From the NCBI GenBank assembly GCA_013298595.1, contig JAAFIG010000002.1, forward strand, positions 124,001 through 188,000: a stretch of DNA of 64,000 nucleotides, read 5' to 3'. Position 1 is the stretch's first letter, and every line of letters begins with the position of its first letter. The notes beneath the pieces were generated by a model that was not told where the DNA came from, searched no databases, and was given only the letters and a program-made list of their open reading frames with translations. Positions 1 to 64,000 of this stretch are shown here, piece after piece. The stretch comes from Deinococcales bacterium. Its GTDB lineage: Bacteria; Deinococcota; Deinococci; Deinococcales; JAAFIG01. A program made the position numbers and the translations under genes.

Positions 1-252
1 GATATCGTGTAAACCTTGACCAGTTGCCAGTGCTGTGGTCAATGCTTGGTGGTGATCGCCGTATTGCAAAGCAGTCAATTCGATGTCGTAGTTAGGGTAT
101 TTCTTTTTTAAACCTGGCAATGCAATTTTCACAGCTTCATCGAGGCTTGGGAAAGCAGCAATGGTAATTTTTTTCATACCTGTTTGGGCGCTGACTAAAC
201 CAGCAACAGCTGCTGTGGCAAGTCCAAAAGCAATAATGGTACGGAGTTTCAT
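1..252 (-). CDS. ABC transporter substrate-binding protein, N-terminal part (runs off left edge)
   Basis: The reverse strand reads from an ATG at 252 into a signal peptide (MKLRTIIAFGLATAAVAG, cleavage near VSA-Q) and then a mature start with KKITIAAFPSLDEAV and LKKKYPNYDIELTAL. This resembles family 1 extracellular solute-binding proteins, which capture sugars for an ABC importer in the periplasm. About 84 codons are visible and the rest lies outside the window. A strong ribosome site (GAGGAGG) precedes the start. A LacI-type operator at 291-304 and the adjacent LacI-family gene suggest carbohydrate control. The substrate cannot be told. Confidence 0.75.
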   Translation of the reverse strand, partial: MKLRTIIAFGLATAAVAGLVSAQTGMKKITIAAFPSLDEAVKIALPGLKKKYPNYDIELTALQYGDHHQALTTALATGQGLHDI

Positions 253-290
253 GGTTTTCCTCCTCAGGAATTGAATGATGGCTTAGTGCT

Positions 291-304
291 TGAAACCGCT
301 TGCA
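291..304. promoter_or_regulatory. LacI/CcpA-type operator upstream of the binding-protein gene
   Basis: The sequence TGAAACCGCTTGCA matches the LacI-family consensus TGnAAnCGnTTnCA at every fixed position. It lies 40 bp upstream of the binding-protein start and next to the regulator gene, so it is the likely target of that regulator. Confidence 0.65.
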
Positions 305-342
305 AAATCAGCTTGAAATCCTCCTTTTACTTGTCCAACAAA

Positions 343-1350
343 TTACGAATGTCTTAATCGAGTGGTTGACTCACGAACCACTAAATGAGGGGTAAAAATC
401 AAAGATGGTAGTTTTCGGTGCTCGAGTAGCGACAATACCATTTGAGCTGCGGCATTGCCCATTTCCTGTCCAGGTTGACGAACAGTTGTCAGTGGCGGAG
501 TTGAATAACTCGAGCCGAATAAATCATCAAAACCAATAATGCTGATGTCTTCTGGAACTCGAATGCCTCGGCGGTATAGGGCTAAACGCGCACCTGATGC
601 CATTTGGTCGTTGGCTGAAAAAACAGCGGTAATACTGGTATCTCGAGTTAGTAATTGTTCCATAGCAAGTAAGCCACTGTGTTCTTGGAAATTGCCTGAT
701 ACAACTAAATTAGGGTCAAAAGGGATATCGTTAGCAGCTAAGACTTGTTGGTAACCGTGTAAGCGTCCTGTCGAGTCACGATGTGACGCTGGTCCTGCGA
801 TATGGGCAATTCGATGGTGTCCTAAGTCAATCAGGTGTTGCACTCCTGCGGCAGCACCTTGTATTTGGTCAATATGAATACATTGATTTTCTAAGCCTTG
901 AATGAAACGTCCAACGGCTACCAGAGGAATTTGTTGAGATAACTGCAATAAATATTGATCGTCTAAGTTGCCACCTAAAATAATTAGGCTATCTACGCGT
1001 CTAGCGGTCAAAATTTCAATTGCCTCGAGTTCTTTATCCTGTCGCCAATGCCCAGAAATAAACATTGGATGATACACACTATCGGCAAACCCTTGTTCGA
1101 TACCTGCTAGTGTTTCGGCATAAAACGGACTCGAGATGGCTTGGGTGACAACACCAACGGTCATTGAACGTCCTTTGGCAAGGGCTTGCGCCATCACATT
1201 TGGACGATAGCCTAGCGTTGCAATGGCTGTTTCGACTTGCTTACGTTTCTCAGGGCTGACGACTGCCGTGCCATTCAGAATCCTCGAGACAGTACTCGGG
1301 GAGACTTGGGCGATTTTGGCAACATCATTGAGTGTTCGTGTGCGAGACAC
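343..1350 (-). CDS. LacI-family transcriptional regulator
   Basis: This is a DNA-binding repressor or activator of the LacI/GalR family, 335 aa from a GTG start at 1350. That start is chosen because GGAGG lies 8 nt upstream and the protein then begins directly with the helix-turn-helix (TLNDVAKIAQVSPSTVSRIL). The hinge helix (RPNVMAQALAKGRS) and a periplasmic-binding-like sensor domain follow (SMTVGVVTQAISSPFY, FSANDQMASGA, ISIIGFDD). A longer reading frame extends to 1449 but adds an uncharacteristic N-terminus. The gene points toward the binding-protein gene on the same strand, 90 bp away. A matching operator at 1401-1414 suggests autoregulation. The inducer is probably a sugar (inference). 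Confidence 0.9.
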   Translation of the reverse strand: MSRTRTLNDVAKIAQVSPSTVSRILNGTAVVSPEKRKQVETAIATLGYRPNVMAQALAKGRSMTVGVVTQAISSPFYAETLAGIEQGFADSVYHPMFISGHWRQDKELEAIEILTARRVDSLIILGGNLDDQYLLQLSQQIPLVAVGRFIQGLENQCIHIDQIQGAAAGVQHLIDLGHHRIAHIAGPASHRDSTGRLHGYQQVLAANDIPFDPNLVVSGNFQEHSGLLAMEQLLTRDTSITAVFSANDQMASGARLALYRRGIRVPEDISIIGFDDLFGSSYSTPPLTTVRQPGQEMGNAAAQMVLSLLEHRKLPSLIFTPHLVVRESTTRLRHS

Positions 1351-1400
1351 TGGCTTTTCCTCCGTTTGGATGGTTTGATTGTGCGAAGTGTAACAGTATC

Positions 1401-1414
1401 TGAAAGCGCTGTCA
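1401..1414. promoter_or_regulatory. LacI-type operator, probably autoregulatory
   Basis: TGAAAGCGCTGTCA is a near-perfect LacI-family operator. It is located 50 bp upstream of the GTG start of the regulator at 1350. Confidence 0.6.
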
Positions 1415-1732
1415 AGAGGTTTGGTCACAAGAACAAAAATCAAGAGCAAATCAGTTTGGTGGTATCACAAAGCGCAGCTCTACTGAAGATAAATGTCTAA
1501 AAAAGTAGCTTAGAAAGTCTATTTCTCGAGTATATAACCTAAAATATATAGTGTTTTAGGCAGAGATATTTTTGTGAGCCAGATTTCTTTTTTGGATAAT
1601 ATCGATGGGTAACTGACAAGTGCTTTTGACTAAGTACGTACTTCAATTTATGAAAGGGCTTTCAGGCAAAATAAGTAAGTTATTTTTAACAATGCAACAG
1701 CGCACACCACAATTCTGGTAGTACCATTTTTG

Positions 1733-1738
1733 TAAACT
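1733..1738 (+). promoter_or_regulatory. Candidate -10 box, near-leaderless, for the SbtA-like gene
   Basis: TAAACT ends 8 nt before the GTG at 1747, the spacing seen at many other starts in this window. No clear -35 is visible. Confidence 0.35.
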
Positions 1739-1746
1739 GGTCAGTT

Positions 1747-2703
1747 GTGGATATTCTCGAGTTATTGCGTTTCAATCTGCTTTCACCAATGGTCTTAGCG
1801 TTCTTACTGGGTTTACTGGCTGTTTGGGTGCGTTCTGATCTCAGCTTACCCAAAGATTTTGCAGCCATTATCAGTGTCTACTTATTGTTCGCAATTGGCT
1901 TAAAAGGTGGTGCTGAACTTTCTGTCACACCATTCTCGAGCATTATTATGCCTATCATCGCCACTCTCATTTTAGGTGTGATCACACCACTGATTGCTTT
2001 TTGGGTTTTACGAAAACGTTTTGATGCAACCAATGCAGCTGCTATTGCCGCGCATTATGGCAGTGTATCAGCAGTCACTTTTACAGCGGCTTTTACTTTT
2101 GCCCAAGTAAAATTTCCCAATGTCGAAGGTTTTATGCCAGCTTTGGTAGCAGTACTCGAGATACCAGGCATTGCCATTGCCATTGCTTTAGCAAAAAATA
2201 CACAAAGTAAATCCCAGCATTTATGGCATGAACTTATAACAGGACGCAGTTTGTTTGTTTTACTTGGCGGCGTTGTCATTGGTTTACTGGCAGGCAAACC
2301 TGGTCTCGAGCAAGTGAAACCATTTTTTGTGGATCCATTTAAAGGGGTTTTAACCTTGTTTTTACTCGAGATGGGATTAATTGCAGGGCAGCGTTTGCGT
2401 GACTTACAAAAAGCAGGTGTTTTCTTGGTTGGTTTTGCCACACTCATGCCAATTGTCTTTGGTTGCTTAGGCATCCTGTTAGCTCGAGTTGCAGGAATGA
2501 GTGAAGGTGGTGCTTTTGTGCTGGGGACAATGGCAGCCAGTGCCAGTTATATTGCTGCGCCAGCAGCGGTTCGAGTTGCATTACCGGAAGCTAACCCTGC
2601 CTACTATCTTGGCTCGAGTATTGGTATGACATTTCCGTTTAATTTGACATTAGGCATTCCGTTATATGCACTTTTTGCCGAACTTGTTTATGGTTGGTTC
2701 TAA
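1747..2703 (+). CDS. SbtA-like sodium-dependent bicarbonate permease
   Basis: An integral membrane protein of 318 aa with about ten hydrophobic segments, starting at a GTG. Its sequence (LKGGAELS, AAHYGSVSAVTFTAA, LLEMGLIAGQRL, GTMAASASYIAAPAAVR) fits the Sbt_1 (formerly DUF897) family, whose cyanobacterial member SbtA imports bicarbonate with sodium. Non-cyanobacterial members are mostly uncharacterised, so the substrate here is inferred. No SbtB-like PII gene is next to it. It is convergent with the serine hydrolase and their ends overlap by 4 nt. CTCGAG is frequent throughout the gene. Confidence 0.8.
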   Translation: MDILELLRFNLLSPMVLAFLLGLLAVWVRSDLSLPKDFAAIISVYLLFAIGLKGGAELSVTPFSSIIMPIIATLILGVITPLIAFWVLRKRFDATNAAAIAAHYGSVSAVTFTAAFTFAQVKFPNVEGFMPALVAVLEIPGIAIAIALAKNTQSKSQHLWHELITGRSLFVLLGGVVIGLLAGKPGLEQVKPFFVDPFKGVLTLFLLEMGLIAGQRLRDLQKAGVFLVGFATLMPIVFGCLGILLARVAGMSEGGAFVLGTMAASASYIAAPAAVRVALPEANPAYYLGSSIGMTFPFNLTLGIPLYALFAELVYGWF

Positions 2704-3785
2704 TTACCGACTAGCATCTGACTGAGTTCTCGAGCGATTCGTTCCATTGGTGCTTGATCTTGGTTACAAAGAATAATCAGGCTGGCTCGAGCGGCTGGGT
2801 ATTTGATAAAAACGGTTCTGTAACCCGGTAATTCACCTGTGTGGACATAGCGTTTTTGCCCAAAGCGCTGATCTATAAACCAACCAAAACCATAACTACC
2901 CAGTTTGGCAGTGAAAATTGTGGATGCTTCAGGTAATGTATCGAGTACTTGACTCCATTGGTACAAATCCTTGAGTGTGCTGACCAGTGCAGCATCGCCA
3001 GCAGGCGGGGTTAAAGCCAGTGGCGGAACTCTTTGCCAGTTTTTTGTGTAACCAACCGCAATGGTATTGCGGTTACTGCTTGGCTCGAGCATTAATGTAG
3101 AACGCAGTTTAACTGGTTTGAGAATAGTATCTTGGACAATTTGAGTAAAAGGTTGCCGACCAACTTGTTCAATTAATTTTGAAAGTACAATATAAGCTGT
3201 GTTGCTATAAGAAAATTTTGTTCCAGGCTTAAACTCGAGCGGGGCTTTATATGCTTGCTCAAGAATGGTTTGGGTGGCATTTTCCCGAGTCATAAAATTC
3301 AAATACGTTTGGCTATGTAAACCAAGAGGTTTTTCATAATCAGCAATACCGCTCGAGTGATGAATGAGTTGACTAATGGTAATCAGTTTCCATTGCTTGG
3401 CGCAGGGTTTGAGGTATTTGCAAAGGCTATCTGTGAGTTTCAATTTACCTTGGTTACTGAGTTTTAAAGCTGTAATCGCTGTGAACATTTTTGAAATAGA
3501 TGCCACATGGAATTTTGTACTGGGTAAGAAATTTTCTCGAGTTTTGCGGTTTGCTAATCCGTACCCTTGGCTCAACACAATTTGATTATTCACAGCAAGT
3601 AATACTGCACCACTAAATTGTTCGGCTTTTACCAATTTTTCTAAATATAGATTTGCTTTTTGCGTTGTATTTTTTGATTGTGCAAAAATAATTCCGATAC
3701 CAGACCCCAGAATTCCGATACTGTAACCAAAAAAAATCAATCCTCGAGCCAGCGTTTGGATATCATGAGGGTATCTGAATAACAT
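2700..3785 (-). CDS. Serine hydrolase, beta-lactamase class C / PBP-like, membrane-anchored
   Basis: A class-C beta-lactamase-fold serine hydrolase of about 361 aa. The catalytic motifs are visible: SxxK (VASISKMFT), YxN (FSYSNTAY) and the HTG version of the KTG box (YVHTGELPG). An N-terminal hydrophobic segment (GLIFFGYSIGILGSGIGII) suggests an uncleaved anchor or signal peptide with the enzyme outside the membrane. The frame stays open to 3881 but would then overlap the divergent hydrolase gene, so the ATG at 3785 is preferred. Likely activities are esterase or peptidoglycan-peptide hydrolase. The sequence gives no reason to call it antibiotic resistance. Confidence 0.8.
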   Translation of the reverse strand: MLFRYPHDIQTLARGLIFFGYSIGILGSGIGIIFAQSKNTTQKANLYLEKLVKAEQFSGAVLLAVNNQIVLSQGYGLANRKTRENFLPSTKFHVASISKMFTAITALKLSNQGKLKLTDSLCKYLKPCAKQWKLITISQLIHHSSGIADYEKPLGLHSQTYLNFMTRENATQTILEQAYKAPLEFKPGTKFSYSNTAYIVLSKLIEQVGRQPFTQIVQDTILKPVKLRSTLMLEPSSNRNTIAVGYTKNWQRVPPLALTPPAGDAALVSTLKDLYQWSQVLDTLPEASTIFTAKLGSYGFGWFIDQRFGQKRYVHTGELPGYRTVFIKYPAARASLIILCNQDQAPMERIARELSQMLVGN

Positions 3786-3823
3786 ATCATTATGGTACCT
3801 GAACAAAAGGTGTAGAGTTTCGT

Positions 3824-4927
3824 ATGCGATTTTTATTAGCAGTTGGTGCATTGGCAGTAGCCGTCTCGAGTTTAGCTGCACAACCAGCTTTAATGGCTCG
3901 AGGACAGTACAAAGTGGGCGTTAAAACCATGCAGCTCGAGTATGGGCAACGCAAATTAACCCTCGAGGTTTGGTATCCTGCTAAAACCGATACGCTCGAG
4001 CAAATTGTGTATCGTTCAACGGTGGGTGATACACCGTATGCCTTAGCTGGTAAAGCAGGTCGAGATGCCACAGCCCTAGATGGTACATTTCCCATGTTGA
4101 TTTATTCGCATGGGCAACCAGGAGCACGTTTCCAAGCAGCCTATCTACTCGAGCACTTAGCTTCGCAGGGTTTTGTGGTGGCAGCCATAGATCACGCAGA
4201 TGCCACTTATGCCGATTTAAAACAAGAAAGTTATGTTTCTGGGTTGGTCAATCGTCCACTGGATATTTTGGCAGTGCTTAACGATTTACCTAAGAAATTA
4301 CCCAATGCCGATGGCAATAATGTCGGTTTGATTGGCTATAGTTATGGTGGTTACTCGAGTCTGAATGCGGCTGGCTTGGGTTTAGATAGTGCTACTTTAA
4401 AAGCCTATTGCCAACAAAGCAATAACGAAGGTCCATGTTTTGTTTTGCCGTACTTTGCTGCGCTCGAGGCAGCTCGAGGTACACAAATTAGTCTTGACCC
4501 TCGGATTAAAGCAGTCATGGTTTTTGCACCTTATGGTATTCCGTGGTTATCAGCAAAAATGATTGCTGATATGAAAGTGCCTTTATTTGTTGGTGTTGGC
4601 AGTGCCGATACTGTTGCCACAGCCAGCCGAGATGCTTTTTCTTTATTTAAGCAAAGTGGCTCGAGTCAAAAGTATTTGTTAACCCTTGAAGCTGCCACCC
4701 ATAATCCATGGATTGTTTGTCCGCCAGAAGTAAAAGTAAATGCTAAGGATTACGAAAGGTGCAGCGAACCAAATTGGGATCATGCGGTTTCACATGGTTT
4801 AGCTCAGCATTTCGCAACCGCGTTTTTTGCTTTACAAATGCAAAAAAATACTGTAATGCGCCAATATTTAACCCCGAGTCTCGAGGGTGTGAGTGATAAG
4901 AACCGTGTCAAACTCGAGACTCGTTAA
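3824..4927 (+). CDS. Secreted alpha/beta hydrolase, PAF-acetylhydrolase/dienelactone-hydrolase-like
   Basis: 367 aa with a signal peptide (MRFLLAVGALAVAVSSLAAQ). The alpha/beta hydrolase core shows FPMLIYSHGQPG (oxyanion region) and the nucleophile elbow GLIGYSYGGYSS, with a late His in LEAATHNPW as candidate triad residue. Cysteines in CQQSNNEGPC and CPPEV..ERC could form disulfides, consistent with export. The substrate is unknown. The gene is divergent from the serine hydrolase with a 38 bp gap and convergent with the lipoprotein gene. Confidence 0.75.
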   Translation: MRFLLAVGALAVAVSSLAAQPALMARGQYKVGVKTMQLEYGQRKLTLEVWYPAKTDTLEQIVYRSTVGDTPYALAGKAGRDATALDGTFPMLIYSHGQPGARFQAAYLLEHLASQGFVVAAIDHADATYADLKQESYVSGLVNRPLDILAVLNDLPKKLPNADGNNVGLIGYSYGGYSSLNAAGLGLDSATLKAYCQQSNNEGPCFVLPYFAALEAARGTQISLDPRIKAVMVFAPYGIPWLSAKMIADMKVPLFVGVGSADTVATASRDAFSLFKQSGSSQKYLLTLEAATHNPWIVCPPEVKVNAKDYERCSEPNWDHAVSHGLAQHFATAFFALQMQKNTVMRQYLTPSLEGVSDKNRVKLETR

Positions 4928-7645: not shown

Positions 7646-7759
7646 CCGCAGGTTCTCGCCTGCGGTCTTGTTGCGTCATCCATGATCGGCACTGGCAAAC
7701 AAGGTTTCGGCTTTTCGGCGATTCGTTTTTCGCATAGCCAGACCACGTTCAAGTCTGGC
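7646..7759 (+). promoter_or_regulatory. rpoB leader with two hairpins
   Basis: The untranslated leader holds a 7 bp hairpin (CCGCAGG / CCTGCGG, 7646-7665) and another (GCCAGAC / GTCTGGC, 7737-7759) that ends 15 nt before the rpoB start, beside the ribosome site. Their position fits attenuation or translational control of RNA polymerase synthesis. The mechanism is not known. Confidence 0.4.
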
Positions 7760-7774
7760 AGACAGGGAGCAAGG

Positions 7775-10700
7775 ATGAAAGAAATCATCCGTTTCGGCAC
7801 CATCAAGGAAATTCTCGAGCTTCCACGATTAGTGGAATTGCAAATTGGTTCGTTTAACCATTTTTTGCAAAAAGGTGTTCTGGCTAAAGACCGCGAGGAC
7901 TTTGGTTTGCAAGGCGCATTCAGAGAGATCTTTCCCATAGACGAATCCGAGAAAAACCGCACAGGTGGTTTGGTCTTGGATTTTCTCGAGTATGAATTGG
8001 GCGACCCGCCCTATAGTCCAGACGAAAGCCGCGATAAGGATTTAACTTATCAAGCGCCAATGTTTGCCAAATTACAACTCATTCACCGCGATACTGGTCT
8101 GATTAAAGAAGACAAAGTCTTCCTTGGCGACCTACCCCTAATGACCGATGAAGGTAGCTTTATCGTCAATGGTGCAGACCGCGTGATTGTTTCACAAATT
8201 CACCGTTCACCTGGTGTGTACTTCACCAAATCGTACCGTGGTTCAAAACCACTTTACGCTGGTTCAATCATTCCAATGCCTAAACGCGGACCGTGGATTG
8301 AACTCGAGTTTGCCACTTCCGATGTGCTCGAAATGAAAGTCAATAAGCGCAAATTCCCAGTTACTATGTTGTTGCGGGTACTGGGTTATGACGATCAATC
8401 GATGCGAAAAATCTTCAAAGGTGCCGATGCTGTTTTAGAAGCCACCTTTAACGAAGATAAAACCGCTGGTATGAGCGGCGAAGAAGCCTTGTTGCGTTTG
8501 TTCACTATTTTGCGTCCTGGTGACCCACCTAAGCGTGACAAAGCGGTTTCGTACTTGTATGGCTTACTCGCCGACCCAAAGCGTTACGATTTAGGTGATG
8601 CTGGTCGTTTCAAAGTCAACAGCAAACTTGGGATTAAAAACCCAGAAAAAACCTTGCTGATTTTTGAAGACGGACAATTTAAAGATGCTGGTTTAATCGC
8701 CACCATTCAGTACTTGTTAACCCTACAAAGCGGCGCAGAAGGCTACTCCGAAGACGACATCGACCACTTGGGTAATCGCCGTGTTCGTACCGTTGGCGAG
8801 TTGCTCGGCGACCAATTCCGTGTTGGCTTAGGGCGTATGGCAAGAGGCGTGCGTGAACGTATGTTACTTGGCAACCCAGACGCTGCCACCCCAAGCAAAT
8901 TGGTCAACAACCGCCCAATTGTGGCTGCTATGCGTGAATTCTTCGGACGTTCGCAACTCAGCCAATTCAAAGACCAAATTAATCCACTGGCAGAACTTCG
9001 TCACAAACGCCGTATTTCGGCGCTTGGACCGGGTGGTTTAACCCGTGAACGCGCAGGTTTCGATGTCCGCGACGTGCACCGTACCCATTACGGACGCATC
9101 TGCCCAATCGAAACACCAGAAGGCGCAAACATTGGTCTGATCTCGAGCTTGGCTTCATTTGCTAAGGTCAATCCACTTGGTTTTATCGAAGCACCCTACC
9201 GTAAAGTGGTCAAAGGCAAGCTGACCGATACCATCGAGTACATGGCAGCCCATACCGAAGACAAATACATTATCGCTCAAGCCAGTACCGTGGTAATTGA
9301 TGGCATGTTATCGGGTCAAGTGGTAGCCCGTAAAAAAGGTGACCCTGTGATTGTGGCAGGCGAAGAATGCGATTACATGGATGTGACCCCGAAACAAATT
9401 GTTTCGATCAGCACCAGTTTAATTCCATTCCTCGAGCACGACGACGCAAACCGTGCCCTCATGGGTAGCAATATGCAATCCCAAGCAGTGCCTTTGGTTC
9501 GTGCCGAACCACCGATGGTGGGTACGGGTATCGAAGAGCGTATTGTGCTTGATTCTGGTACCAATTTAATTTGCGATGTGGATGGCGAAGTTGTTGAAGT
9601 AGACGGTGCGAAAATTGTTGTCAAATACGGCAAAAATAACATCCGCGAATTCAAGCTAACCCGCTTCCAACGCAGCAATTACGGCACCAACCACGATCAA
9701 AAACCAATTGTCAAACTAGGCGATACTGTCAAAGCTGGACAAGTCCTTGCCGATGGTCCTGCTTCACAAAATGGTCGTTTGGCACTGGGTCAGAATATCA
9801 CCATTGCGATTATGCCTTTTGATGGTTACAACTACGAAGACGCGATTGTGCTGTCTGAAAACCTGATTCGCAAGGATTTCTACACCAGCATTCACATCGA
9901 AAAGCACGAAAAAGAGGCTCGAGATACCAAGCTCGGACCTGAGAAAATCACCAGAGATATCCCAGGTTTGTCCGAAGCTGCATTGCGCGACCTCGACGAG
10001 GACGGCATTGTCCGTGTTGGAGCCGAAGTCAAACAAGGTGATATCTTGGTAGGGCACACCAGCTTCAAGGGCGAAACCGAACCAACCCCAGAAGAACGCT
10101 TGTTACGTTCGATTTTCGGCGAAAAAGCCAGAGAAGTCAAAGACACTTCGGCTCGAGTTCCATCGGGTGAAGGTGGCATTGTTATTCGTACAGTCCGCTT
10201 TAAGCGTGGCGAAGAAGGCGTGGACTTAAAACCTGGTGTGCGCGAAATGGTGCGTATTTACGTGGCGCAACGCCGCAAGTTGCAAGTCGGCGATAAGTTA
10301 GCCAATCGTCACGGTAACAAAGGTGTCGTGGCTCGTATCCAAGCCCCAGAAGATATGCCGTACTTACCAGATGGTACCCCAGTAGACCTTGTTTTCAATC
10401 CGCTTGGTGTGCCTAGCCGTATGAATCTTGGTCAAATCTTTGAGACGCACCTTGGTGAAGTTGCCCGTCGCATGGGAGTCAGTTTTGTTACTCCAGTTTT
10501 TGATAGTGCTACCGAAGCCCAAATTAAAGAACGTCTGATTTCCACTGCTAAAGAAGCCGTCGAAGCCCATGAAAAACTTGGTTATGGCATGGATAACCGT
10601 GAAGCCGAAGTGATTACTCGTGCCCAAAAACTCGGTGTGATTTCTATGGAAAACACCCTCGAGAAAGCTCGAGAAAACCTTTGGGGAACGGGTAAGACCA

Positions 10701-11143
10701 CCTTGTTTGATGGTCGTACTGGCGAAGCCATCGAAGGTCCTGTGGTGGTTGGCACAATGTATGTCTTGAAGCTTTACCACATGGTTGAAGACAAGATGCA
10801 CGCCCGTAGCACTGGACCCTACAGCTTGATTACTCAACAACCCTTGGGTGGTAAAGCCCAAAACGGTGGTCAACGCTTCGGTGAAATGGAAGTTTGGGCA
10901 CTCGAGGCTTACGGCGCAGCTCATACTTTGCAAGAAATTTTGACGGTCAAATCTGACGATATCGGTGGACGCGACGATGCGTACCAAGCCATTGTCAAAG
11001 GCGAAGAAGTGCAGGATGCCAGCATTCCAGAGTCGTTCAAAGTGCTTGTCAAAGAACTTCACAGCCTCGGTTTAGATGTACAAGTGCTTGACCAAAACGA
11101 TAAAACCGTGGACATCTTTGAAGGAATGATGCCTAGAAGATAA
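7775..11143 (+). CDS. rpoB: DNA-directed RNA polymerase subunit beta
   Basis: 1122 aa, close to the Thermus/Deinococcus beta length. It forms one half of the RNA polymerase active cleft. Visible conserved regions include GSFIVNGADRVIVSQIHRSP, GRICPIETPEGANIG (rifampicin region context), FDGYNYEDAIVLSE, LANRHGNKGVVARI and, near the C-terminus, KAQNGGQRFGEMEVWALEAYGA. The ATG at 7775 has GGGAGCAAGG just upstream and gives the usual MKEIIRFG start. rplJ and rplL are not upstream, unlike in E. coli. rpoC follows after 75 bp. CTCGAG is about half as dense here as in neighbouring genes. Confidence 0.98.
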   Translation: MKEIIRFGTIKEILELPRLVELQIGSFNHFLQKGVLAKDREDFGLQGAFREIFPIDESEKNRTGGLVLDFLEYELGDPPYSPDESRDKDLTYQAPMFAKLQLIHRDTGLIKEDKVFLGDLPLMTDEGSFIVNGADRVIVSQIHRSPGVYFTKSYRGSKPLYAGSIIPMPKRGPWIELEFATSDVLEMKVNKRKFPVTMLLRVLGYDDQSMRKIFKGADAVLEATFNEDKTAGMSGEEALLRLFTILRPGDPPKRDKAVSYLYGLLADPKRYDLGDAGRFKVNSKLGIKNPEKTLLIFEDGQFKDAGLIATIQYLLTLQSGAEGYSEDDIDHLGNRRVRTVGELLGDQFRVGLGRMARGVRERMLLGNPDAATPSKLVNNRPIVAAMREFFGRSQLSQFKDQINPLAELRHKRRISALGPGGLTRERAGFDVRDVHRTHYGRICPIETPEGANIGLISSLASFAKVNPLGFIEAPYRKVVKGKLTDTIEYMAAHTEDKYIIAQASTVVIDGMLSGQVVARKKGDPVIVAGEECDYMDVTPKQIVSISTSLIPFLEHDDANRALMGSNMQSQAVPLVRAEPPMVGTGIEERIVLDSGTNLICDVDGEVVEVDGAKIVVKYGKNNIREFKLTRFQRSNYGTNHDQKPIVKLGDTVKAGQVLADGPASQNGRLALGQNITIAIMPFDGYNYEDAIVLSENLIRKDFYTSIHIEKHEKEARDTKLGPEKITRDIPGLSEAALRDLDEDGIVRVGAEVKQGDILVGHTSFKGETEPTPEERLLRSIFGEKAREVKDTSARVPSGEGGIVIRTVRFKRGEEGVDLKPGVREMVRIYVAQRRKLQVGDKLANRHGNKGVVARIQAPEDMPYLPDGTPVDLVFNPLGVPSRMNLGQIFETHLGEVARRMGVSFVTPVFDSATEAQIKERLISTAKEAVEAHEKLGYGMDNREAEVITRAQKLGVISMENTLEKARENLWGTGKTTLFDGRTGEAIEGPVVVGTMYVLKLYHMVEDKMHARSTGPYSLITQQPLGGKAQNGGQRFGEMEVWALEAYGAAHTLQEILTVKSDDIGGRDDAYQAIVKGEEVQDASIPESFKVLVKELHSLGLDVQVLDQNDKTVDIFEGMMPRR

Positions 11144-11218: not shown

Positions 11219-14200
11219 ATGCGCGACTTTAGCAAAGTAAAAATTCAACTTGCCAGCCCCGAGAAAATCCGTTCTTGGAGTTATGGTGAAGTCGAAAAAC
11301 CAGAAACCATTAATTACCGTACACTCAAACCAGAACGTGATGGTTTGTTTGACGAGCGGATTTTCGGACCTGAAAAGGATTACGAATGCGCTTGCGGTAA
11401 GTACAAACGTCAACGTTATGAAGGTAAAGTCTGTGAGCGTTGCGGTGTCGAAGTGACTAAACGCATCGTGCGTCGTTACCGCATGGGACATATCGAACTT
11501 GCTACGGCAGCTGCCCATATTTGGTATGTCAAAGATATTCCAAGTAAAATTGGTACCTTACTCGACCTCAGCGCTGGGCAACTCGAGCAAGTCTTGTACT
11601 TTGGTAAGTTCATTGTGACCGATCCACAAGGTGCAATTAAAGATGGTCGCCCACTGAAAAAAGGCGAGTTGCTTTCCGACGAAGAGTACCGCGAACTACG
11701 CATTGGTAAGCAAGAAACGTATTCTTTACAAGTTGGAACCCATGCCGAAGTGCGTGACGGAGAATACGTCACTCGAGGACAAAAACTCGGTGGCAATGTC
11801 GTCTCGAAAATGGATGGTGTTGCCCAGTATCGTTTCCCACGCAAAGCAACCCTCGAGTACGCTCGAGAAGGCGAAGCCAAATTCACACTGCCAAAAGGTG
11901 TGACCATTGAACTCGAAGCTTTCCGAGCTGGCGAAGAAATTTGTGATGGCATTGAAAATCACAGTATTCTAGCCACTCGAGATGGTGTGATCAGCATTAC
12001 CGAACTTGGCGAAGGCTTTGGTCGTGGTGGTGTGATTATCGAAGTCCAAGACCCTGAAGATGCCCAAGTGCTCGAGCGTGTCTTTGTGCCAATGGGCTTT
12101 GAAGTGCTGGTTGGCGATGGCGAAAGTGTCGAATCTGATACCGAACTCGCCCAAGCCAATGGCGATTTAATTCGTATGCCCCGTGGTGCAAATGCCAGTG
12201 CTGTCAGCAGCAAAAAACGTGGTTCTAATCTCGATGTTTCCTTGACACTGCACTGGAATCTCGAGAAAACCCTCGAGATTAACCCAACCATGCACGTCTT
12301 GGTTGGCGATGGCGCAGAGTTTAGTGCTGGTGACCGTTTAATTGGTGCCATAGACCCATCCCAAGAAATTATGGCAGAAGCTGATGGTACATTAACACTG
12401 CAAGAACCAGCCAGCATCATTGTTTCTCGAGCAAAATTGTACAAATACGAAGATGAACCGATTGTGGTCAATGGCGACCGTGTTGAACCAGGCGATGACT
12501 TGGCAGACAAAGGCAATCTCAAATCCGAAATTCATGGTCGTATCGAAATTGATTTGGTACGTCGTCAAGTGCGCGTTGTTGAAGCTTACGACTTTGAAGC
12601 TCGCATGGGTGCAGAAGCCATCAAGCAATTGCTAGAAGGTATTGTTCTCGAGACCCTCGAAGCCGAATTAAACGAAGAAATGACCAACCCAAGTCGCCAC
12701 AAACGAGCCAAAGCCCGTAAGCGTCTCGAGGTGGCTCGTGCTTTCCGTAAGAGCGGGAATCGCCCAGAGTGGATGATTCTTGACAGCGTACCTGTGATGC
12801 CGCCAGATTTGCGTCCGATGGTGCAAGTGGATGGTGGGCGTTTTGCGACTTCAGATTTGAACGATTTGTACCGCCGCTTGATTAACCGCAACAACCGTTT
12901 GAAGAAGTTAATGACCACGGGCGCACCAGAAATGATTGTTCGCAACGAAAAACGCATGTTGCAAGAAGCTGTAGATGCGCTGATTGACAATGGTCGTCGT
13001 GGTACTCCAGTCACCCACCCAGGTTCAGATCGAGCATTACGTAGCCTCACCGATTTACTTGGTGGTAAACAGGGTCGTTTCCGTCAGAACTTGCTTGGTA
13101 AACGCGTAGATTACTCTGGTCGTTCGGTGATTGTGGTTGGTCCACAATTGCGTTTACATCAATGCGGATTGCCAAAACGTATGGCACTCGAGTTATTCAA
13201 ACCATTTTTGTTTAAAGTGCTCGAGGAAAAAGGTGTTGTTACCAACATCAAGCAAGCCCGTAAGCTGCTCGAGCGTTACCGCGACACCCGCGACGAAATT
13301 TGGGATGCCTTAGAAGAAGTCATCCAAGACAAAGTGGTGCTGTTAAACCGCGCACCGACCTTGCACCGTCTTGGTATTCAAGCTTTCACCCCAGTTTTGG
13401 TTGAAGGTCAGGCTATTCAATTGCACCCACTGGTTTGCGAAGCCTTCAACGCCGATTTCGATGGCGACCAAATGGCAATTCACGTACCACTCTCGCCATA
13501 CGCCCAAGCAGAAGCTCGAGTACAAATGCTTTCGGCACATAATTTGCTTTCGCCTGCTAACGGCGAACCAAACGTCAAACCAGCTAAAGACATTATTTTA
13601 GGTATTTACACCCTGACCCAACCACGCCCAGGCAAAGTTGGTATGGGCAGTAAATTCAAAGATCAAGAAGAAGTCTTAAAAGCCCTCGAGAAGAACAAAG
13701 TTGATCTGAACTCTCGCATTGTTGTTGGTGGCAGAGAAACCAGCGCAGGCGCAATTCGCCATATCTTTGGTAATCTCGATGAAGCCTTACATGCAGTACA
13801 ACGCGGCGAAATTGACACCCAAGACAGTGTTTCAATCCGCTTAGATTTAGTCAGTGGCTCAGAGATTATTGAAACCACCACAGGACGGGCATTGTTCCGT
13901 CGTATGGTCAACGAAACCATCACCGAAGATGGCAGTATCCTATCTCGAGAATACGTCAACCTGACCACCACCTACGGCAAGAACCCTTTGACCGAAATGG
14001 TGATTGATATCTTCAAAACCATGGGTGTGGAAAAAACTGCTGCGATTCTTGACGCACTCAAATCCAATGGTTTCAAACTCGCCAGTACCAGCGGCGTAAC
14101 TGTCGGTATTGACGATGCCATGATTCCACCCGAGAAAACCGAATTGCTGCGAAAAGCCGACCTTGAACTCGAGCAAATCCGCGAAGATTCAGACCTTGGT

Positions 14201-19777: not shown

Positions 19778-19852
19778 TGGCTCGGGAGGTAGGGATCGAA
19801 CCTACGACCAATCGGTTAACAGCCGATTGCTCTACCGCTGAGCTACTCCCGA
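19778..19852 (-). tRNA. tRNA-Asn (anticodon GUU)
   Basis: The reverse strand begins TCGGGAGTAGCTCAG and ends CTCCCGA-G-CCA. The acceptor stem is fully paired, the anticodon loop is CTGTTAACC with GTT, and the T loop is GTTCGATCC. CCA is encoded. Confidence 0.95.
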
Positions 19853-19976
19853 ACGCGGTTAGTGCGGACGAAAATGTATCATGGGTTTTCGAGAAACGCA
19901 AGCCCCCCTTTTGGTATTATTGGTTTGGGGCTTGACGTTGTGCGGTTAAGCGTGTATCTTTTGTTGCCCTGAGCGT

Positions 19977-20063
<87 letters not shown>

Positions 20064-20240: not shown

Positions 20241-20344
20241 AAGCATGATATTCTCTTATATCAGCGCTTCACTGTTTGCTGGTCGTGTGTTTTCCTAAGG
20301 TGGTCTTAGGAAGCGATTTTGGCACAGTGGGAAACGGTGGGAGA

Positions 20345-22010: not shown

Positions 22011-22056
22011 GTCAGTATCAAGGTATGTAAAATCTGTTGAAAAATTGGAAACCTCT

Positions 22057-23493: not shown

Positions 23494-23537
23494 AATTGTT
23501 CGATGAAGTCTTTATTGACAGTATTAACAACATATGG

Positions 23538-23557: not shown

Positions 23558-23581
23558 TGATTCGTGTCTACCGAGGTTCTG

Positions 23582-29227: not shown

Positions 29228-29265
29228 TGTGTAGGAGTTGCTTGCCCACAAACCTAGAAAATCTT

Positions 29266-49485: not shown

Positions 49486-50775
49486 ATGAACCGAATACTC
49501 TCAACCCTAAGCCACAGCACTCAGCGATACATCGCAGCTTTTAGTTTACTCTTCCTATTCGCCGCTTGTAACCAAACACCAACACCAAACAACCCAGACC
49601 CAAACAACATAACTGGAATGCAAGTCGAAAACGAAAATGGTACACTCAGCTTAGCCGCAGCCACAACCCAAGGTTTAACAGGTGATTATTTTGATAACAT
49701 GGATTTCACTGGAACCAAAAAAACACAAATAGATGCCACCATCAACAAAACATGGAACAACAACAGCCCAGTAACAGGCATCGCCAAAACCACGTATAGC
49801 GTCAGATGGACAGGTCAAATCCAACCTCAATACACGCAAAAGTACACGTTTTACGTAACCTCGAGTGACGGAGCTAGGCTTATGGTTAATGGTCAAGCTT
49901 TGGTCAATGATTGGAAAGATGGCGTGAACCGAGTTCGTAGTGGAACAGTGGACTTAATAGCCAATACCAAGTACGACATTCGACTCGAGTACTACCGTAA
50001 TGCAACCAATGCAGGAGCTGTGAAACTCGAGTGGCAAAGTACGAGCCGAACGAGACAAGTTGTGCCACAAGTAAAATTATACCCAACAGGCAGCAATTCA
50101 ACTATTGCTTTCAATCTTGTTACTCAAAATGCGAAATTTCAAGCACTAAATTTAGTTGTGAACCAAACAGAAGTTTTTGCTGTCTTAGGTTCAGATGGAA
50201 CAATATCAGTCAATATGCCTGAGAAAAATGGCTTAGGATTTGCTATTGCAGCAATTAAACAAAATGTTGTCCAACAATTATTTTACATTTCACGATTGAA
50301 TGATGTTGGCGTTTTTAAAAATGTACTGAAAAATAAGAGTGTTGAAATTCCTAATTTAAGTCAGTTTAGGAATGCCGATGGCTCATATACCTTGAGTCAA
50401 CTTCAAAGTGTTGCTAATCTATTGGTAGAAGTAGTTTCAGAAGGCGCTATCAAGAAACAACTTTCAAATGCTCAAACCACAAGTATCAAACCACAATGGG
50501 CTGAGTCTATTCCAAATGCGTGTAATTGGATTCCACCACCTCCAAGTTGTACCAATGGTAATTGCTCCATAATTGCTGATGCGTATAGAGAGGCAGTGTG
50601 TGGTGTTCTTTATGGGACAGGTGAATTTTTGCTGGGTCAGGCGGCAGGAGCCATACTGACAGGTGGGTGGGCAAATGTAGCCTTTTATAGGTGGGTCAGC
50701 ACCACTAGATGTGCTTTTGAGACTCACTTCATTAGAATCGTTATGGGAAAAGTATATTCTATGTATCTCTGGTAA
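49486..50775 (+). CDS. PA14-domain lipoprotein, C-terminus altered by a probable frameshift
   Basis: 429 aa from the ATG at 49486 behind GGAGGG. Lipoprotein signal (YIAAFSLLFLFAACNQ) and then a PA14 domain at ~65-205 (GLTGDYFDNMDFTG, TYSVRWTGQIQP, YTFYVTSSDGARLMVNGQ, KLEWQS), which usually binds glycans. The rest has no clear family but contains cysteines (IPNACNWIPPPPSCTNGNC). After about residue 399 the frame probably slips: removing one T from TTTT at 50683-50686 joins this gene to the next open frame and would give one protein of about 940 aa. Confidence 0.75.
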   Translation: MNRILSTLSHSTQRYIAAFSLLFLFAACNQTPTPNNPDPNNITGMQVENENGTLSLAAATTQGLTGDYFDNMDFTGTKKTQIDATINKTWNNNSPVTGIAKTTYSVRWTGQIQPQYTQKYTFYVTSSDGARLMVNGQALVNDWKDGVNRVRSGTVDLIANTKYDIRLEYYRNATNAGAVKLEWQSTSRTRQVVPQVKLYPTGSNSTIAFNLVTQNAKFQALNLVVNQTEVFAVLGSDGTISVNMPEKNGLGFAIAAIKQNVVQQLFYISRLNDVGVFKNVLKNKSVEIPNLSQFRNADGSYTLSQLQSVANLLVEVVSEGAIKKQLSNAQTTSIKPQWAESIPNACNWIPPPPSCTNGNCSIIADAYREAVCGVLYGTGEFLLGQAAGAILTGGWANVAFYRWVSTTRCAFETHFIRIVMGKVYSMYLW

Positions 50776-52312
50776 ACTACCATCTGATAATGCTGGAACA
50801 ATGATTGTTGGATGTCCACCAAAGATAATTACACCTGAACCAATAGGAATCCGTAAACCCCTCAATACATTAGGTACTGTAGCAATTCCAGTAAAAAGTG
50901 ATGGTACTTCTGATTCAACACTCCAATATAGTCCTTACCTTGTAGGAAGTACCTCAAAAGGAAAACAAATACGTGTTATTTTTTCTGAAGATGGTGAAGT
51001 ATTTAAACTTTTAAAGGGAGACGAGTATGCTCATTTTCTGAGCTATGCTTGTCCAGATATACCTTCAGAGTGGGTCGGTATTTTATTTTTATACCATAAT
51101 GCGCTTACGAACCAATCTGGTATGGCAGTCGATAATCCGTATAAAATCAGTGTAAAAATAACTTGTTATGGTGAACCCAGACTAATAGTAGACCCTAATC
51201 CTGTACTAATGTCTACGCCAGTTAATACGATATTACCAACTAAAGTAGTTAAGATGACAAACGATGGTACAGAAGTTCTCGAGATTACAGGTTTTGATTA
51301 CAAGGAAATCAAGCCTTTAACGGGTAGCAAAGTCACTCCTTTGTTTCCTGCGGCTTCTACTGCTAATCCGTTAAAAATTGCTGTGGGCGGAAACAATTTC
51401 TTTTCGTTAGACCCCGTTTGCGGTAACACTGCTGGTAAGCTCGAGGGTACTATTACTATCTCGAGTAATGCTACGAATGTGCCCAATGGAACTTTAAGCG
51501 TAGGCGTAACGCTCGAGTGTACTGGTGCGCCTCAAATCTTGGCAACACCTAATCCTCTGAACTTGTACGCACCAAATACTTTTTCTGGTTACGCAGATTC
51601 TATCGCAGGTGGCATTATTAAGGTAGAAAATAAGGGTGTTGGAAATTTAATTATTAAAAACACTACTTTGGTAGGCAATAAGTTTAGTATGCCTAATCCT
51701 ATTGCACCAAATACGGTCATTGCACCAAATGACTTTCAGAATGTAGTAATTCAGGGTGTTTGTGATAAAACTACGACTGTTTATTCTGGAACATTGAAAA
51801 TTGAAAGTAATGACCCAAGTTCACCGTTTACGGATGTTGGGCTTACACTCGAGTGTTTCTGGCAAGTGAATACGGGTGTTGAGATTAGAACGTTCCAGAG
51901 AGGTGGTAGTTTTGGATCAAGACAAAATCTCATTACAGGTCAATCAGAATGCTATGAAGAACATAACATAACCATTTTTGCTAGTGTATATAATGGTGGT
52001 GTCATTATAAATCAACCAAATGACATTTCTTGGAGTAGTGGTGAAGGTCAAGTTAATGTTCTAAGCGTTTCAGGTTCTATAGATTGTAGGGCAGAGTTTA
52101 GCGCTAAATGGAACGCAGCTAAAGATGGGTATTACAATCTTGCGAAGAAGATTATAGTGGATAAGTTGAAACCGTATTATCGGTTGAAAATTCTAAATTT
52201 ACCAATGGATAGCTTCGATTATACATTGCTTCCTAACTATGGTGCTACTAATCAAATTGAATTAAATTGTACAACGCCTAATAGTGTTTATTATTGTGGT
52301 GGTAAGCTTTAA
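50681..52312 (+). CDS. ASH/choice-of-anchor D-like repeat protein, probably the 3' half of the PA14 gene
   Basis: Open from 50681; the first possible start is a GTG at 50711 without a ribosome site or signal peptide. Two or more Ig-like repeats are visible, each with PxPxxLxxxxPN..VKMTNDGTEVLEITG and ISSNATNVPNGTLSVGVTLEC patterns, typical of ASH/choice-of-anchor modules on exported proteins. A Cys closes each repeat (TLECTG, TLECFW). Without a start or export signal it makes sense only fused to the PA14 lipoprotein. The first 590 nt contain no CTCGAG. Confidence 0.65.
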   Translation, partial: PFIGGSAPLDVLLRLTSLESLWEKYILCISGKLPSDNAGTMIVGCPPKIITPEPIGIRKPLNTLGTVAIPVKSDGTSDSTLQYSPYLVGSTSKGKQIRVIFSEDGEVFKLLKGDEYAHFLSYACPDIPSEWVGILFLYHNALTNQSGMAVDNPYKISVKITCYGEPRLIVDPNPVLMSTPVNTILPTKVVKMTNDGTEVLEITGFDYKEIKPLTGSKVTPLFPAASTANPLKIAVGGNNFFSLDPVCGNTAGKLEGTITISSNATNVPNGTLSVGVTLECTGAPQILATPNPLNLYAPNTFSGYADSIAGGIIKVENKGVGNLIIKNTTLVGNKFSMPNPIAPNTVIAPNDFQNVVIQGVCDKTTTVYSGTLKIESNDPSSPFTDVGLTLECFWQVNTGVEIRTFQRGGSFGSRQNLITGQSECYEEHNITIFASVYNGGVIINQPNDISWSSGEGQVNVLSVSGSIDCRAEFSAKWNAAKDGYYNLAKKIIVDKLKPYYRLKILNLPMDSFDYTLLPNYGATNQIELNCTTPNSVYYCGGKL

Positions 52313-56986: not shown

Positions 56987-57031
56987 AAAAAACATCACCT
57001 CGAGCGTGTTCTCTCGAGGTGATGTTTTTTT
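56987..57031 (+). terminator. Terminator with CTCGAG on both arms
   Basis: The stem AACATCACCTCGAG / CTCGAGGTGATGTT has an 8 nt loop and long T tract. Two CTCGAG copies pair with each other. Confidence 0.9.
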
Positions 57032-61853: not shown

Positions 61854-61911
61854 AACCTGATTTACGAGAAAAACTCATCTAAAGTCTTGTTTTCTCTCTC
61901 ATGATTCGAGG

Positions 61912-61917
61912 TACAAT
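61912..61917 (+). promoter_or_regulatory. Near-leaderless -10 box of the ABC transporter operon
   Basis: TACAAT ends 8 nt before the GTG at 61926. Confidence 0.4.
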
Positions 61918-61925
61918 GCAGTCTT

Positions 61926-62852
61926 GTGCTGATCGTTGAGCATCTTCAAAAACGCTATGGTTCGTTCACCGCCGTCCACGACGTGAGTTTTCATGTCCAA
62001 GCAGGGGAGGTCTATGGTTTACTTGGACCGAATGGCGCAGGAAAATCCAGCACTATTCGGGTTTTATCGTGCCTTGCCAAGCCAGATTCGGGTTCGGTAC
62101 GGATCAATGGCATGGATATTGTTCGTGAACAAGGCAAAGTTAAACGCACAATTGGCATTGTGCCCCAGGACTTTGCTCTTTACGATGACTTCTCGGCTCG
62201 AGAGAACCTGATTTTCTTTGGGCGCTTGTACGGCATTAGTGGGCGTGAACTCAAAATTCGTGCCGATGAACTGCTCGAGGCAGTGGGTTTACTCGAGCGA
62301 GGCAACGAAGCTGTTGGGACTTTTTCGGGTGGTATGAAACGCCGCATTAACATTGCGGCTGGTCTGATGCACAAACCCAAGATGTTGTATTTGGATGAAC
62401 CAACAGTAGGCATAGACCCCCAATCGCGGCGCAATATCCTCGATTTGGTCAAAACCCTTAATGCAGGTGGTTTGACTGTGCTTTACACCACGCATTATAT
62501 GGAAGAAGCTGAAGAACTCTGTCACCGAATTGGGGTCATAGATCAGGGCAAAATCATTGCTGAAGGCACACTTTCTGAAATGCGTTCAATGGCAGGAGAA
62601 ACTGCACCCATTCGGCTCGAGTTACGCGATAATCTTTCAAAACCTCAACTCGAGCAATTACGCACCATTGCCGAAGAAGTCATTACCCAAGATAAAACCA
62701 TTACCTTGTTTACTCGAGATCCAAAAACGGCGTTATCGGGTATTTTGCAAATGCTGGCAGATTTTGGTGCCCATGTACACCATCTTGAACTTGATGAACC
62801 TGATCTCGAGACAGTTTTTTTGAAATTAACAGGGCGGCGTTTACGTGATTAA
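61926..62852 (+). CDS. ABC-2 type exporter, ATP-binding protein
   Basis: 308 aa from a GTG. CcmA/DrrA-like ATPase: Walker A LLGPNGAGKSSTIRVL, Q-loop IVPQDFALYDDFSA, signature FSGGMKRRINIAAGL, Walker B MLYLDEPTVGID, H-switch TTHYMEEAEELC. The DrrA-type C-terminal extension is present (TALSGILQMLADFGAHVHHLELDEPDLETVFLKLTGRRL). It energises export of a lipid, drug or polymer with the adjacent permease, which it overlaps by 8 nt. Confidence 0.93.
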   Translation: MLIVEHLQKRYGSFTAVHDVSFHVQAGEVYGLLGPNGAGKSSTIRVLSCLAKPDSGSVRINGMDIVREQGKVKRTIGIVPQDFALYDDFSARENLIFFGRLYGISGRELKIRADELLEAVGLLERGNEAVGTFSGGMKRRINIAAGLMHKPKMLYLDEPTVGIDPQSRRNILDLVKTLNAGGLTVLYTTHYMEEAEELCHRIGVIDQGKIIAEGTLSEMRSMAGETAPIRLELRDNLSKPQLEQLRTIAEEVITQDKTITLFTRDPKTALSGILQMLADFGAHVHHLELDEPDLETVFLKLTGRRLRD

Positions 62853-64000
62853 TCTGATCCTAACGGTTACTTGGCGCGATGTGGTGGCACAATTGCGTTC
62901 GCGCAGTTTTATGGTATTTACCTTGTTATTGCCGATTGTGCTTACTTTGATAATTGGTAATGCCATCGGGGGTACAACCGACTTTAAGCCTCTGCCTGTG
63001 GCAGTGGTTGGCACAGGCGAAATCGCTAATGGCTTAAAGAAATTACTCGCCGATACCAAAACCGCTGTGGTTTTCACCCTTGCTGATGCGAGCCAAGCCG
63101 AAACCATGGTGCGAATTGGTAAAGCCACCATGAGTATTGTGCTGCCCGAACGGCTCGAGATTAAGTTTTTACGTAATGATCCGCTGAACATCGAAGTGTA
63201 CTTAGATCCGACTAGCCATCAACGTGGCGAATTGATTAAACAATTGGTACAAGGCTATATGCAGCAACTCGAAGCAGCCAGAGCTGCATTGCTAGGCTCA
63301 GTACAAGCCATTGCCCCTGCCACAGCCGCTGATTTACAAAATACCTTGCTTGCAGTACGAACAAAAATCGAAAAGCAATACCAAATTGCAGCGGTTAACC
63401 TCGAGCAAAAAGAAGCAGGTGGGCGCAGCCAAGGGATTTTTGCCTATTACGCAGTGGCGTTCGGTGTGATGTTCACATTGTTATCAGCAACCAATGGCGC
63501 TGGTGGTGTGATAGATGAACTCGAGCGTGGCACAATTCATCGGCTATTGGCTTCACCATTAACCCCAACATTATTGCTGGTCTCAAAATTTATTGCCTTA
63601 TGGATACTTGGCGTTTGGCAACTTGGGGTGTTTGCAGTTTTTTCAAGCATTATTTACGGTGTTTCATGGGGTTCACCATTGGCTGTGCTGCCAGTACTGC
63701 TGGCAACGGCTGCTGCTGCTGCTGGTTTTGGCGGTATTATTCTGGGCATCTCACGCTCCAGAGAACAACTCAATACCCTCTCCTTGGTTTTTGTACTGGT
63801 CATGAGTTTACTTGGTGGTTCGATGTGGCCACTCGAGACTTTACCTGCGGCTGCACAAATGCTTTCAAAATTAACCTATAACCGTTGGAGTATCGAAGCC
63901 TTTCAATTGGCTGCTGTTTCCTCGAGTGATCCACAAATTCTGATTGCTATTGCTGTGCTGAGCGCTATGGCAATTGTTGGGGTTTGTTTTGGTTCGATGC
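62845..64000 (+). CDS. ABC-2 type exporter permease (runs off right edge)
   Basis: About 385 codons visible from a GTG at 62845 that overlaps the ATPase stop. One TM helix (SFMVFTLLLPIVLTLIIGNAI), a long extracytoplasmic loop (~40-205, with QAETMVRIGKATMSIVLPERLE), and then the ABC-2 membrane core (IFAYYAVAFGVMFTLLSATNGA, VIDELERGTIHRLLASPLTP, LGGSMWPLETLPAAAQMLSKL). The NodJ/DrrB-like pattern fits an exporter of drugs or lipids. The C-terminus is outside the window. Confidence 0.88.
   Translation, partial: MINLILTVTWRDVVAQLRSRSFMVFTLLLPIVLTLIIGNAIGGTTDFKPLPVAVVGTGEIANGLKKLLADTKTAVVFTLADASQAETMVRIGKATMSIVLPERLEIKFLRNDPLNIEVYLDPTSHQRGELIKQLVQGYMQQLEAARAALLGSVQAIAPATAADLQNTLLAVRTKIEKQYQIAAVNLEQKEAGGRSQGIFAYYAVAFGVMFTLLSATNGAGGVIDELERGTIHRLLASPLTPTLLLVSKFIALWILGVWQLGVFAVFSSIIYGVSWGSPLAVLPVLLATAAAAAGFGGIILGISRSREQLNTLSLVFVLVMSLLGGSMWPLETLPAAAQMLSKLTYNRWSIEAFQLAAVSSSDPQILIAIAVLSAMAIVGVCFGSM

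What the first reader, a model, noticed from the sequence alone, without database searches (positions are those of the whole stretch)
1..64000. CTCGAG as a HIP1-like highly iterated palindrome
Seen: 33 CTCGAG copies in the first 5 kb and similar density elsewhere, on the order of 30-fold over chance for a window of this composition. The hexamer appears in all reading frames and in noncoding DNA, so neither a dipeptide nor a codon preference explains it. GAG codons and CGA codons seem largely confined to this context. Known: cyanobacteria carry HIP1 (GCGATCGC) at comparable density, with unresolved function. I know of no described CTCGAG equivalent in Deinococcota. Inference: a mutational or repair bias, a solitary methyltransferase recognising CTCGAG, or a chromosome-organisation signal maintains it.
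Basis: partly seen in the sequence, partly recalled or inferred. Interest (0 to 1): 0.92.

Follow-up and report, generated by a model that had tools for sequence, protein, structure and literature searches.

The report
CTCGAG saturates a Deinococcales genome
One six-letter DNA palindrome, CTCGAG, is written about every 160 letters throughout this uncultured Deinococcales genome and its nearest relatives, 50-100 times more often than chance and strongly enough to double the Leu-Glu pairs in its proteins; it is a highly iterated palindrome like HIP1 of cyanobacteria, in a phylum where I found none described.

Summary
The window holds 379 CTCGAG (33 in the first 5 kb; 56x an order-1 Markov expectation), the genome 27,159 (5.9/kb). 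Density is alike in genes (all frames) and between genes. All six positions are held: the 18 one-off hexamers stay near background. Leu-Glu dipeptides are 2.4x over expectation, so the force bends proteins; codon preference and simple mutational bias do not explain it. It is lineage-wide: 38-90x in four genomes of the window's family and two of a sister family, and often the most enriched palindrome in the rest of the order (111 genomes counted, 62 sampled). No methyltransferase from five Pfam families is shared by all saturated genomes; the best candidate is HpaII-like (CCGG). Enrichment tracks avoidance of all other palindromes (rho -0.74) and is low in five near-complete genomes lacking ComEC (0.8-2.4x versus median 4.8x; p 0.0004, 0.016 within families). 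My best explanation, moderately held, is a per-site transmission drive through natural transformation (uptake-sequence-like self mark). Methyl-directed repair and a nucleoid-protein site remain open. New variant of the HIP / uptake-sequence kind; function unproven.

The parts
1..64000 (.). 379 copies of CTCGAG (palindrome, both strands), 5.9 per kb, across the whole window
   Evidence: genome-wide 27,159 copies
421..4918 (.). The 33 copies of the first 5 kb: starts 421, 509, 642, 1024, 1130, 1283, 1525, 1756, 1935, 2155, 2305, 2365, 2483, 2613, 2729, 2786, 3084, 3234, 3352, 3536, 3743, 3865, 3897, 3935, 3962, 3995, 4148, 4354, 4463, 4473, 4660, 4880, 4913
7682..11143 (+). rpoB: only 10 copies (2.9/kb), a strongly constrained gene with fewer sites
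   Evidence: gene name from the translation and its place before rpoC (my reading)
11219..15808 (+). rpoC: 25 copies (5.4/kb)
   Evidence: gene name from the translation (my reading)
20276..35936 (+). Division and cell-wall cluster (mraZ to ftsZ), 90 copies (5.7/kb); region used for alignment with G001-G003
50026..51278 (.). The one gap over 1 kb between copies in the window (1,252 bp, GC 0.38)
56999..57018 (+). Paired copies CTCGAG-N8-CTCGAG inside a longer perfect hairpin (AAAAAACATCACCTCGAG...CTCGAGGTGATGTTTTTT), terminator-like, just after a gene end
19778..20063 (.). tRNA-Asn and tRNA-Leu genes: no copy inside

Best explanation
CTCGAG is a lineage-wide highly iterated palindrome held near saturation by a force that acts additively on every exact copy, in coding and noncoding DNA alike. 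The size of the force is estimated from counts: an intact copy is favoured over a one-off form by a scaled strength of about 4 (ln of 74/1.26). The mechanism is inferred: DNA pieces carrying exact CTCGAG are passed on preferentially between cells by natural transformation (a self-DNA uptake or incorporation mark), so recombination turns near-misses into CTCGAG and keeps copies intact, a transmission drive like that of Neisseria and Haemophilus uptake sequences. The same traffic through mixed restriction systems would explain why the same genomes are nearly free of many other restriction palindromes. The reader of the mark (pilin, translocation protein or modification enzyme) is unknown.
For: (1) Every position is held: one-offs total 1233 vs 1216 (order 1) or 969 (order 2, CTCGAG masked) beside 2889 exact copies; the same in intergenic DNA (242 vs 230 beside 500). 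(2) Similar density in coding and noncoding DNA, no flanking motif (at most 0.025 bits). (3) It overrides protein sequence: Leu-Glu O/E 2.4 (Ser-Ser 1.55), broadly tracking motif strength across genomes from 1.06 (G004) to 2.86 (G012). (4) Genome-wide equilibrium, not fixed functional sites: where Leu-Glu is conserved, G001 uses CTCGAG in 40 of 44 whatever G000 uses (Fisher OR 0.88). (5) Spacing is memoryless from 60 to 350 bp, as for an additive per-copy force. (6) Lineage: 38-90x in f1 and two f2 genomes, 8-11x in most sampled Meiothermus-like genomes, constant while avoided words (GGCC, CCGG, GATC) change between near relatives. (7) Five genomes of at least 92% completeness without ComEC have O/E 0.8-2.4; 50 with it have median 4.8 (p 0.0004; 0.0025 after size and GC; 0.016 within families). 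(8) O/E correlates with avoidance of other palindromes, rho -0.74, p 1e-10. (9) Some of the longest motif-free stretches carry defence-like, probably acquired genes (SIR2; E2/ThiF/JAB); uptake sequences are likewise absent from recently acquired genes (PMC2397512).
Against: [quoted passage not shown] CTCGAG is only 2.4-6.7x in the Thermus-like genus. Most genomes with ComEC in families f3 and f4 have weak enrichment, so competence is not sufficient. The ComEC association rests on five absences, is only family-stratified (no tree) and is carried mainly by G004. G016 (58% complete) lacks a ComEC hit yet is saturated. ComEC was the only competence gene tested. Codon-atypical genes are not clearly poorer in the motif. 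Known uptake sequences are 9-12 bp, not palindromic, and about one per kb, not one per 160 bp. No receptor was identified.
Confidence: 0.4

Rival explanations
1. Methyl-linked HIP: a methyltransferase modifies CTCGAG and repair or another process guided by the mark creates and keeps the sites (Elhai's model for HIP1 and alternate HIPs).
For: Alternate HIPs in cyanobacteria coincide with cognate methyltransferases (PMC4390886). A solitary CTCGAG methyltransferase with motif clusters at the replication origin is reported in Nocardia (PMC4752239). A repair bias restoring any one-off would also leave no halo.
Against: No MTase from Pfam PF00145, PF01555, PF07669, PF02384 or PF02086 is shared by G000-G003 and G012. 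The best solitary candidate (G000:C15) is close to an MTase beside an HpaII endonuclease (CCGG) and is absent from G002 and G003. Modification genes and avoided words turn over between these genomes while CTCGAG does not.
Confidence: 0.25
2. Binding site of an abundant nucleoid or chromosome-organising protein, each bound copy giving a small benefit.
For: Uniform density in coding and noncoding DNA; scarcity of second copies within about 45 bp in coding DNA (0.06-0.80 of expected) resembles a footprint; vertical constancy across families.
Against: In intergenic DNA the scarcity is confined to under 12 bp, so the coding effect may be mRNA hairpin avoidance, although inverted repeats in general show little of it. 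No longer-range spacing rule. Does not by itself explain the link with palindrome avoidance or ComEC loss. No candidate protein.
Confidence: 0.2
3. Mutational bias: a sequence-specific mutator or very-short-patch-like repair makes CTCGAG, with no selection or drive.
For: TTCGAA, two transitions from CTCGAG, is absent (0 vs 149 expected), as a T-to-C ratchet would give; transition one-offs are 1.5-3.1x.
Against: Copies decaying neutrally would leave hundreds of one-offs at every position; they stay near background. The motif doubles Leu-Glu at the protein level. TTCGAA absence is one of many absent restriction palindromes. Vsr itself was not searched.
Confidence: 0.07
4. Leu-Glu dipeptide or codon preference.
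For: 59% of coding copies are CTC GAG in frame.
Against: Present in all three frames and in intergenic DNA at nearly the same density; Ser-Ser is also raised.
Confidence: 0.01

Closest known systems
HIP1 (GCGATCGC) and alternate HIPs of cyanobacteria (Robinson 1995; Elhai 2015, PMC4390886)
   Same: Palindrome, extreme over-representation genome-wide, one dominant word per genome.
   Different: Different word (CTCGAG) and phylum; about one per 160 bp against about one per 1000 bp for most HIPs; no cognate methyltransferase found; almost no one-off excess here, whereas one-offs of the 10-mer form of HIP1 were about 11-fold over expectation (1830 vs 160, PMC1939737; word lengths differ).
DNA uptake sequences of Neisseria (DUS) and Pasteurellaceae (USS) (PMC2397512, PMC1939737)
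   Same: Short word at high copy, highly conserved, explained by transmission or molecular drive, absent from recently acquired DNA; here some motif-free stretches carry defence genes and ComEC-less genomes lack strong enrichment.
   Different: Palindromic 6-mer, several times denser; no uptake experiment; Thermus uptake reported as not sequence-specific.
Solitary CTCGAG methyltransferase of Nocardia (Blow 2016, PMC4752239)
   Same: Same hexamer.
   Different: There motif clusters lie at the replication origin; here the whole genome is saturated and no corresponding enzyme was found.
Restriction-site avoidance
   Same: Same genomes: other palindromes are depleted (e.g. GGCC, GAGCTC, TTCGAA near zero in G000).
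   Different: Opposite sign; CTCGAG is the one strong exception.

Membership tests
Highly iterated palindromes (HIP) | Palindromic word far above Markov expectation genome-wide | tested here: met
   56x in window, 27,159 copies in genome; 70x over masked order 2
Highly iterated palindromes (HIP) | Found in all frames and in noncoding DNA | tested here: met
   6.35/kb coding, 5.67/kb intergenic
Highly iterated palindromes (HIP) | Cognate methyltransferase in the genome | tested here: inconclusive
   Five Pfam MTase families searched in 12 genomes; none shared by all saturated genomes, best candidate HpaII-like; specificities not measured, other MTase families not searched
HIP1 itself (GCGATCGC) | The word GCGATCGC | tested here: not met
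   1 copy in 464 kb
DNA uptake sequence (DUS/USS) | Promotes DNA uptake in competence assays | not testable with these tools
   Needs cultured competent cells
DNA uptake sequence (DUS/USS) | Enrichment depends on natural competence | tested here: inconclusive
   ComEC-less genomes low, p 0.0004 raw, 0.016 within families; five absences only
DNA uptake sequence (DUS/USS) | Rare in recently acquired genes | tested here: inconclusive
   Motif-free gaps include SIR2 and E2/ThiF/JAB genes, but others hold lipoprotein-like or FG-GAP genes, and codon typicality did not predict lower density
DNA uptake sequence (DUS/USS) | Spacing matches conversion-tract length | not tested
Mutational hotspot or VSP-type bias | Halo of decaying one-off sites | tested here: not met
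   1233 observed vs 969-1216 expected beside 2889 copies

The most novel reading that the evidence does not exclude
CTCGAG is a palindromic self-DNA mark for natural transformation in a deep Deinococcota lineage, dense enough to reshape the proteome; the same transmission drive, working through mixed restriction systems, erases other palindromes, so both the favoured and the forbidden words of these genomes are set by success in horizontal passage, which would also give a testable account of HIP1.
Probability: 0.3. Interest if true: 0.92.

Novelty: new variant of a known kind. Interest (0 to 1): 0.82.

Why it matters
HIP1 has resisted explanation since 1995. An independent highly iterated palindrome in another phylum, denser and strong enough to change amino acids, with a natural series of strengths from none (G004) through 8-11x (Meiothermus-like genomes, probably including cultured species) to 70-90x, gives the question a comparative axis and probably cultivable test organisms. 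If the transformation link holds, it would add a new family of uptake-type sequences and connect motif gain with restriction-site loss; if a methylation link holds, it would extend the HIP-methyltransferase rule beyond cyanobacteria.

Tried and rejected
C5 methyltransferase of G000 (L001) as the CTCGAG enzyme: it looked solitary (PADLOC orphan model) with orthologs in G001 and G012, but is absent from G002 and G003 and its plasmid relatives include one beside an HpaII endonuclease (CCGG). Positional conservation (62% of copies shared with G001 against 23% of hexamers) first looked like site-specific function; given conserved Leu-Glu, codon choice in G001 is independent of G000, so it shows a genome-wide equilibrium instead. 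Local repulsion read as a protein footprint: not seen beyond 12 bp in intergenic DNA. A first MTase clustering ignored minus-strand genes and was redone. Codon-typicality test for foreign genes: no clear trend. Literature: no paper found describing CTCGAG iteration in Deinococcota; the only genome-wide CTCGAG over-representation found elsewhere was in honey bee intergenic DNA.
Full report
What is there. The window is G000:C12:124001-188000 of a 4.58 Mb genome in 68 contigs. It holds 379 CTCGAG, 33 in the first 5 kb and 21-42 in each further full 5 kb; expectation 12.9 under base composition, 6.8 under order 1, 24 under order 2. The whole genome has 27,159 copies against 15 of the reversed control GAGCTC.

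Not a codon effect. In 464 kb of this genome with my own simple gene calls, copies fall in all three frames (1413, 555, 421) and in intergenic DNA at 5.67/kb against 6.35/kb in genes. 57% of GAG and 56% of CTC codons, but only 37% of CGA and 32% of TCG codons, lie inside CTCGAG. Leu-Glu dipeptides are 2.39x expectation and Ser-Ser 1.55x; across genomes Leu-Glu broadly follows motif strength, 1.06 in G004 to 2.86 in G012. The force therefore changes proteins. The constrained rpoB gene carries 2.9/kb, rpoC 5.4/kb.

Not a decaying mutational hotspot. If copies were made by a mutational process and then drifted, one-off hexamers would pile up. The 18 one-offs total 1233 against 1216 (order 1) or 969 (order 2, motif masked), beside 2889 exact copies; transitions are mildly raised (1.5-3.1x over the masked models) and transversions at positions 2 and 5 depleted (0.4-0.5x). 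In intergenic DNA: 500 copies, 242 one-offs against 230 expected. Flanks carry almost no information. All six positions are held, with a scaled preference of about 4 (ln of 74/1.26; my estimate).

A genome-wide equilibrium. At 74% DNA identity to G001, 62% of copies sit at the same place against 23% for hexamers in general; G003 52% vs 14%, G002 29% vs 10%. But where Leu-Glu itself is conserved, G001 uses CTCGAG in 40 of 44 cases whether or not G000 does (OR 0.88). So positions are shared because proteins permit them, not because single sites have known functions. Spacing: second copies within 45 bp are scarce in genes (0.06 to 0.80 of expected), in intergenic DNA only within 12 bp; from 60 to 350 bp the hazard is flat. 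Some paired copies form terminator-like hairpins, e.g. 56999-57018.

Lineage. Counts in 111 genomes of the order, with background from sampled DNA for 62 of them: 38-74x in four f1 genomes, 75-90x in f2 genus g11, 9x in G008, none in G004 (0.8x), 8-11x in most sampled genomes of genus g13 and in g23 (Meiothermus and Allomeiothermus judging from replicon sizes I remember; not confirmed by a tool), 2.4-6.7x in g7 (Thermus-like), mostly 1.3-3x in f3 and f4 with exceptions of 8-27x in f3 and up to 5.5x in f4. Among 36 to 55 genomes O/E correlates with avoidance of other palindromes (rho -0.78 and -0.74). In G000 GGCC, GAGCTC and GAGCCC (GRGCYC type), TTCGAA, CTTAAG and others are nearly absent. 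Avoided words differ between close relatives; CTCGAG does not.

Methyltransferases. Five Pfam families searched over 12 genomes and compared give no family shared by all saturated genomes. The solitary C5 enzyme of G000 is an HpaII relative, and CCGG is depleted there. A CTCGAG solitary MTase is reported in Nocardia. Fragmented assemblies, unsearched MTase families and non-homologous enzymes of equal specificity keep the methyl route open.

Competence. ComEC is found in 100 of 111 genomes. The five genomes of at least 92% completeness without it that were sampled have O/E 0.75, 1.5, 1.7, 2.0, 2.4; 50 with it have median 4.8 (p 0.0004; after size and GC p 0.0025). Stratified by family p 0.016, carried mainly by G004 against its sister genera. 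This is suggestive, not proof: it is not tree-corrected and rests on absences in draft assemblies.

Mechanism. Shown: saturation, position-by-position maintenance, protein cost, lineage pattern. Inferred: per-copy transmission drive through transformation. It predicts additive, memoryless, context-free accumulation, loss with competence and scarcity in newly acquired DNA; the longest gaps include defence-type genes (SIR2; E2/ThiF/JAB), though other gap genes are not of that type. Against it: Thermus uptake is reported as not sequence-specific, and many members with ComEC show weak enrichment. Rivals: methyl-directed repair or conversion, and a nucleoid-protein site.

Novelty. Highly iterated palindromes are a known kind (cyanobacteria, PMC4390886). 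This one differs in word, phylum, density and protein effect, and lacks an evident methyltransferase; I found no earlier report in the held literature, which lacks most subscription journals.

Noticed in passing
G000, 464 kb sampled (window and L021-L040): Extreme restriction-type palindrome avoidance: GGCC 12 copies (O/E 0.01), GAGCTC, GGGCCC and GAGCCC, TTCGAA (0 vs 149), AGGCCT, CCGCGG at zero.
   Followed up: partly
L053-L054 (G016) vs L049-L052 (G012): GATC is O/E 0.00 in G016 but 1.35 in G012 of the same genus; avoided words turn over fast (only 12.7 kb of G016).
   Followed up: no
L040:11487-15266 and L023:8041-11381: CTCGAG-poor islands carrying a SIR2-domain protein and an E2/ThiF/JAB protein beside an unassigned 371-aa protein, probable acquired defence systems.
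   Followed up: partly
L094:399-2823: PglX-like 514-aa methyltransferase next to a match to a type II restriction enzyme model (PADLOC REase_II, 353 bits).
   Followed up: no
L058-L060 (G004): Sister-family genome with no ComEC hit, no CTCGAG enrichment and no palindrome avoidance.
   Followed up: partly
Window 56999-57018: Terminator-like hairpin whose stem contains both CTCGAG copies.
   Followed up: no
G007, G049, G086 (Thermus-like genus g7): TGCGCA, not CTCGAG, is the top enriched palindrome in three of the four g7 genomes ranked, perhaps a second iterated word.
   Followed up: no
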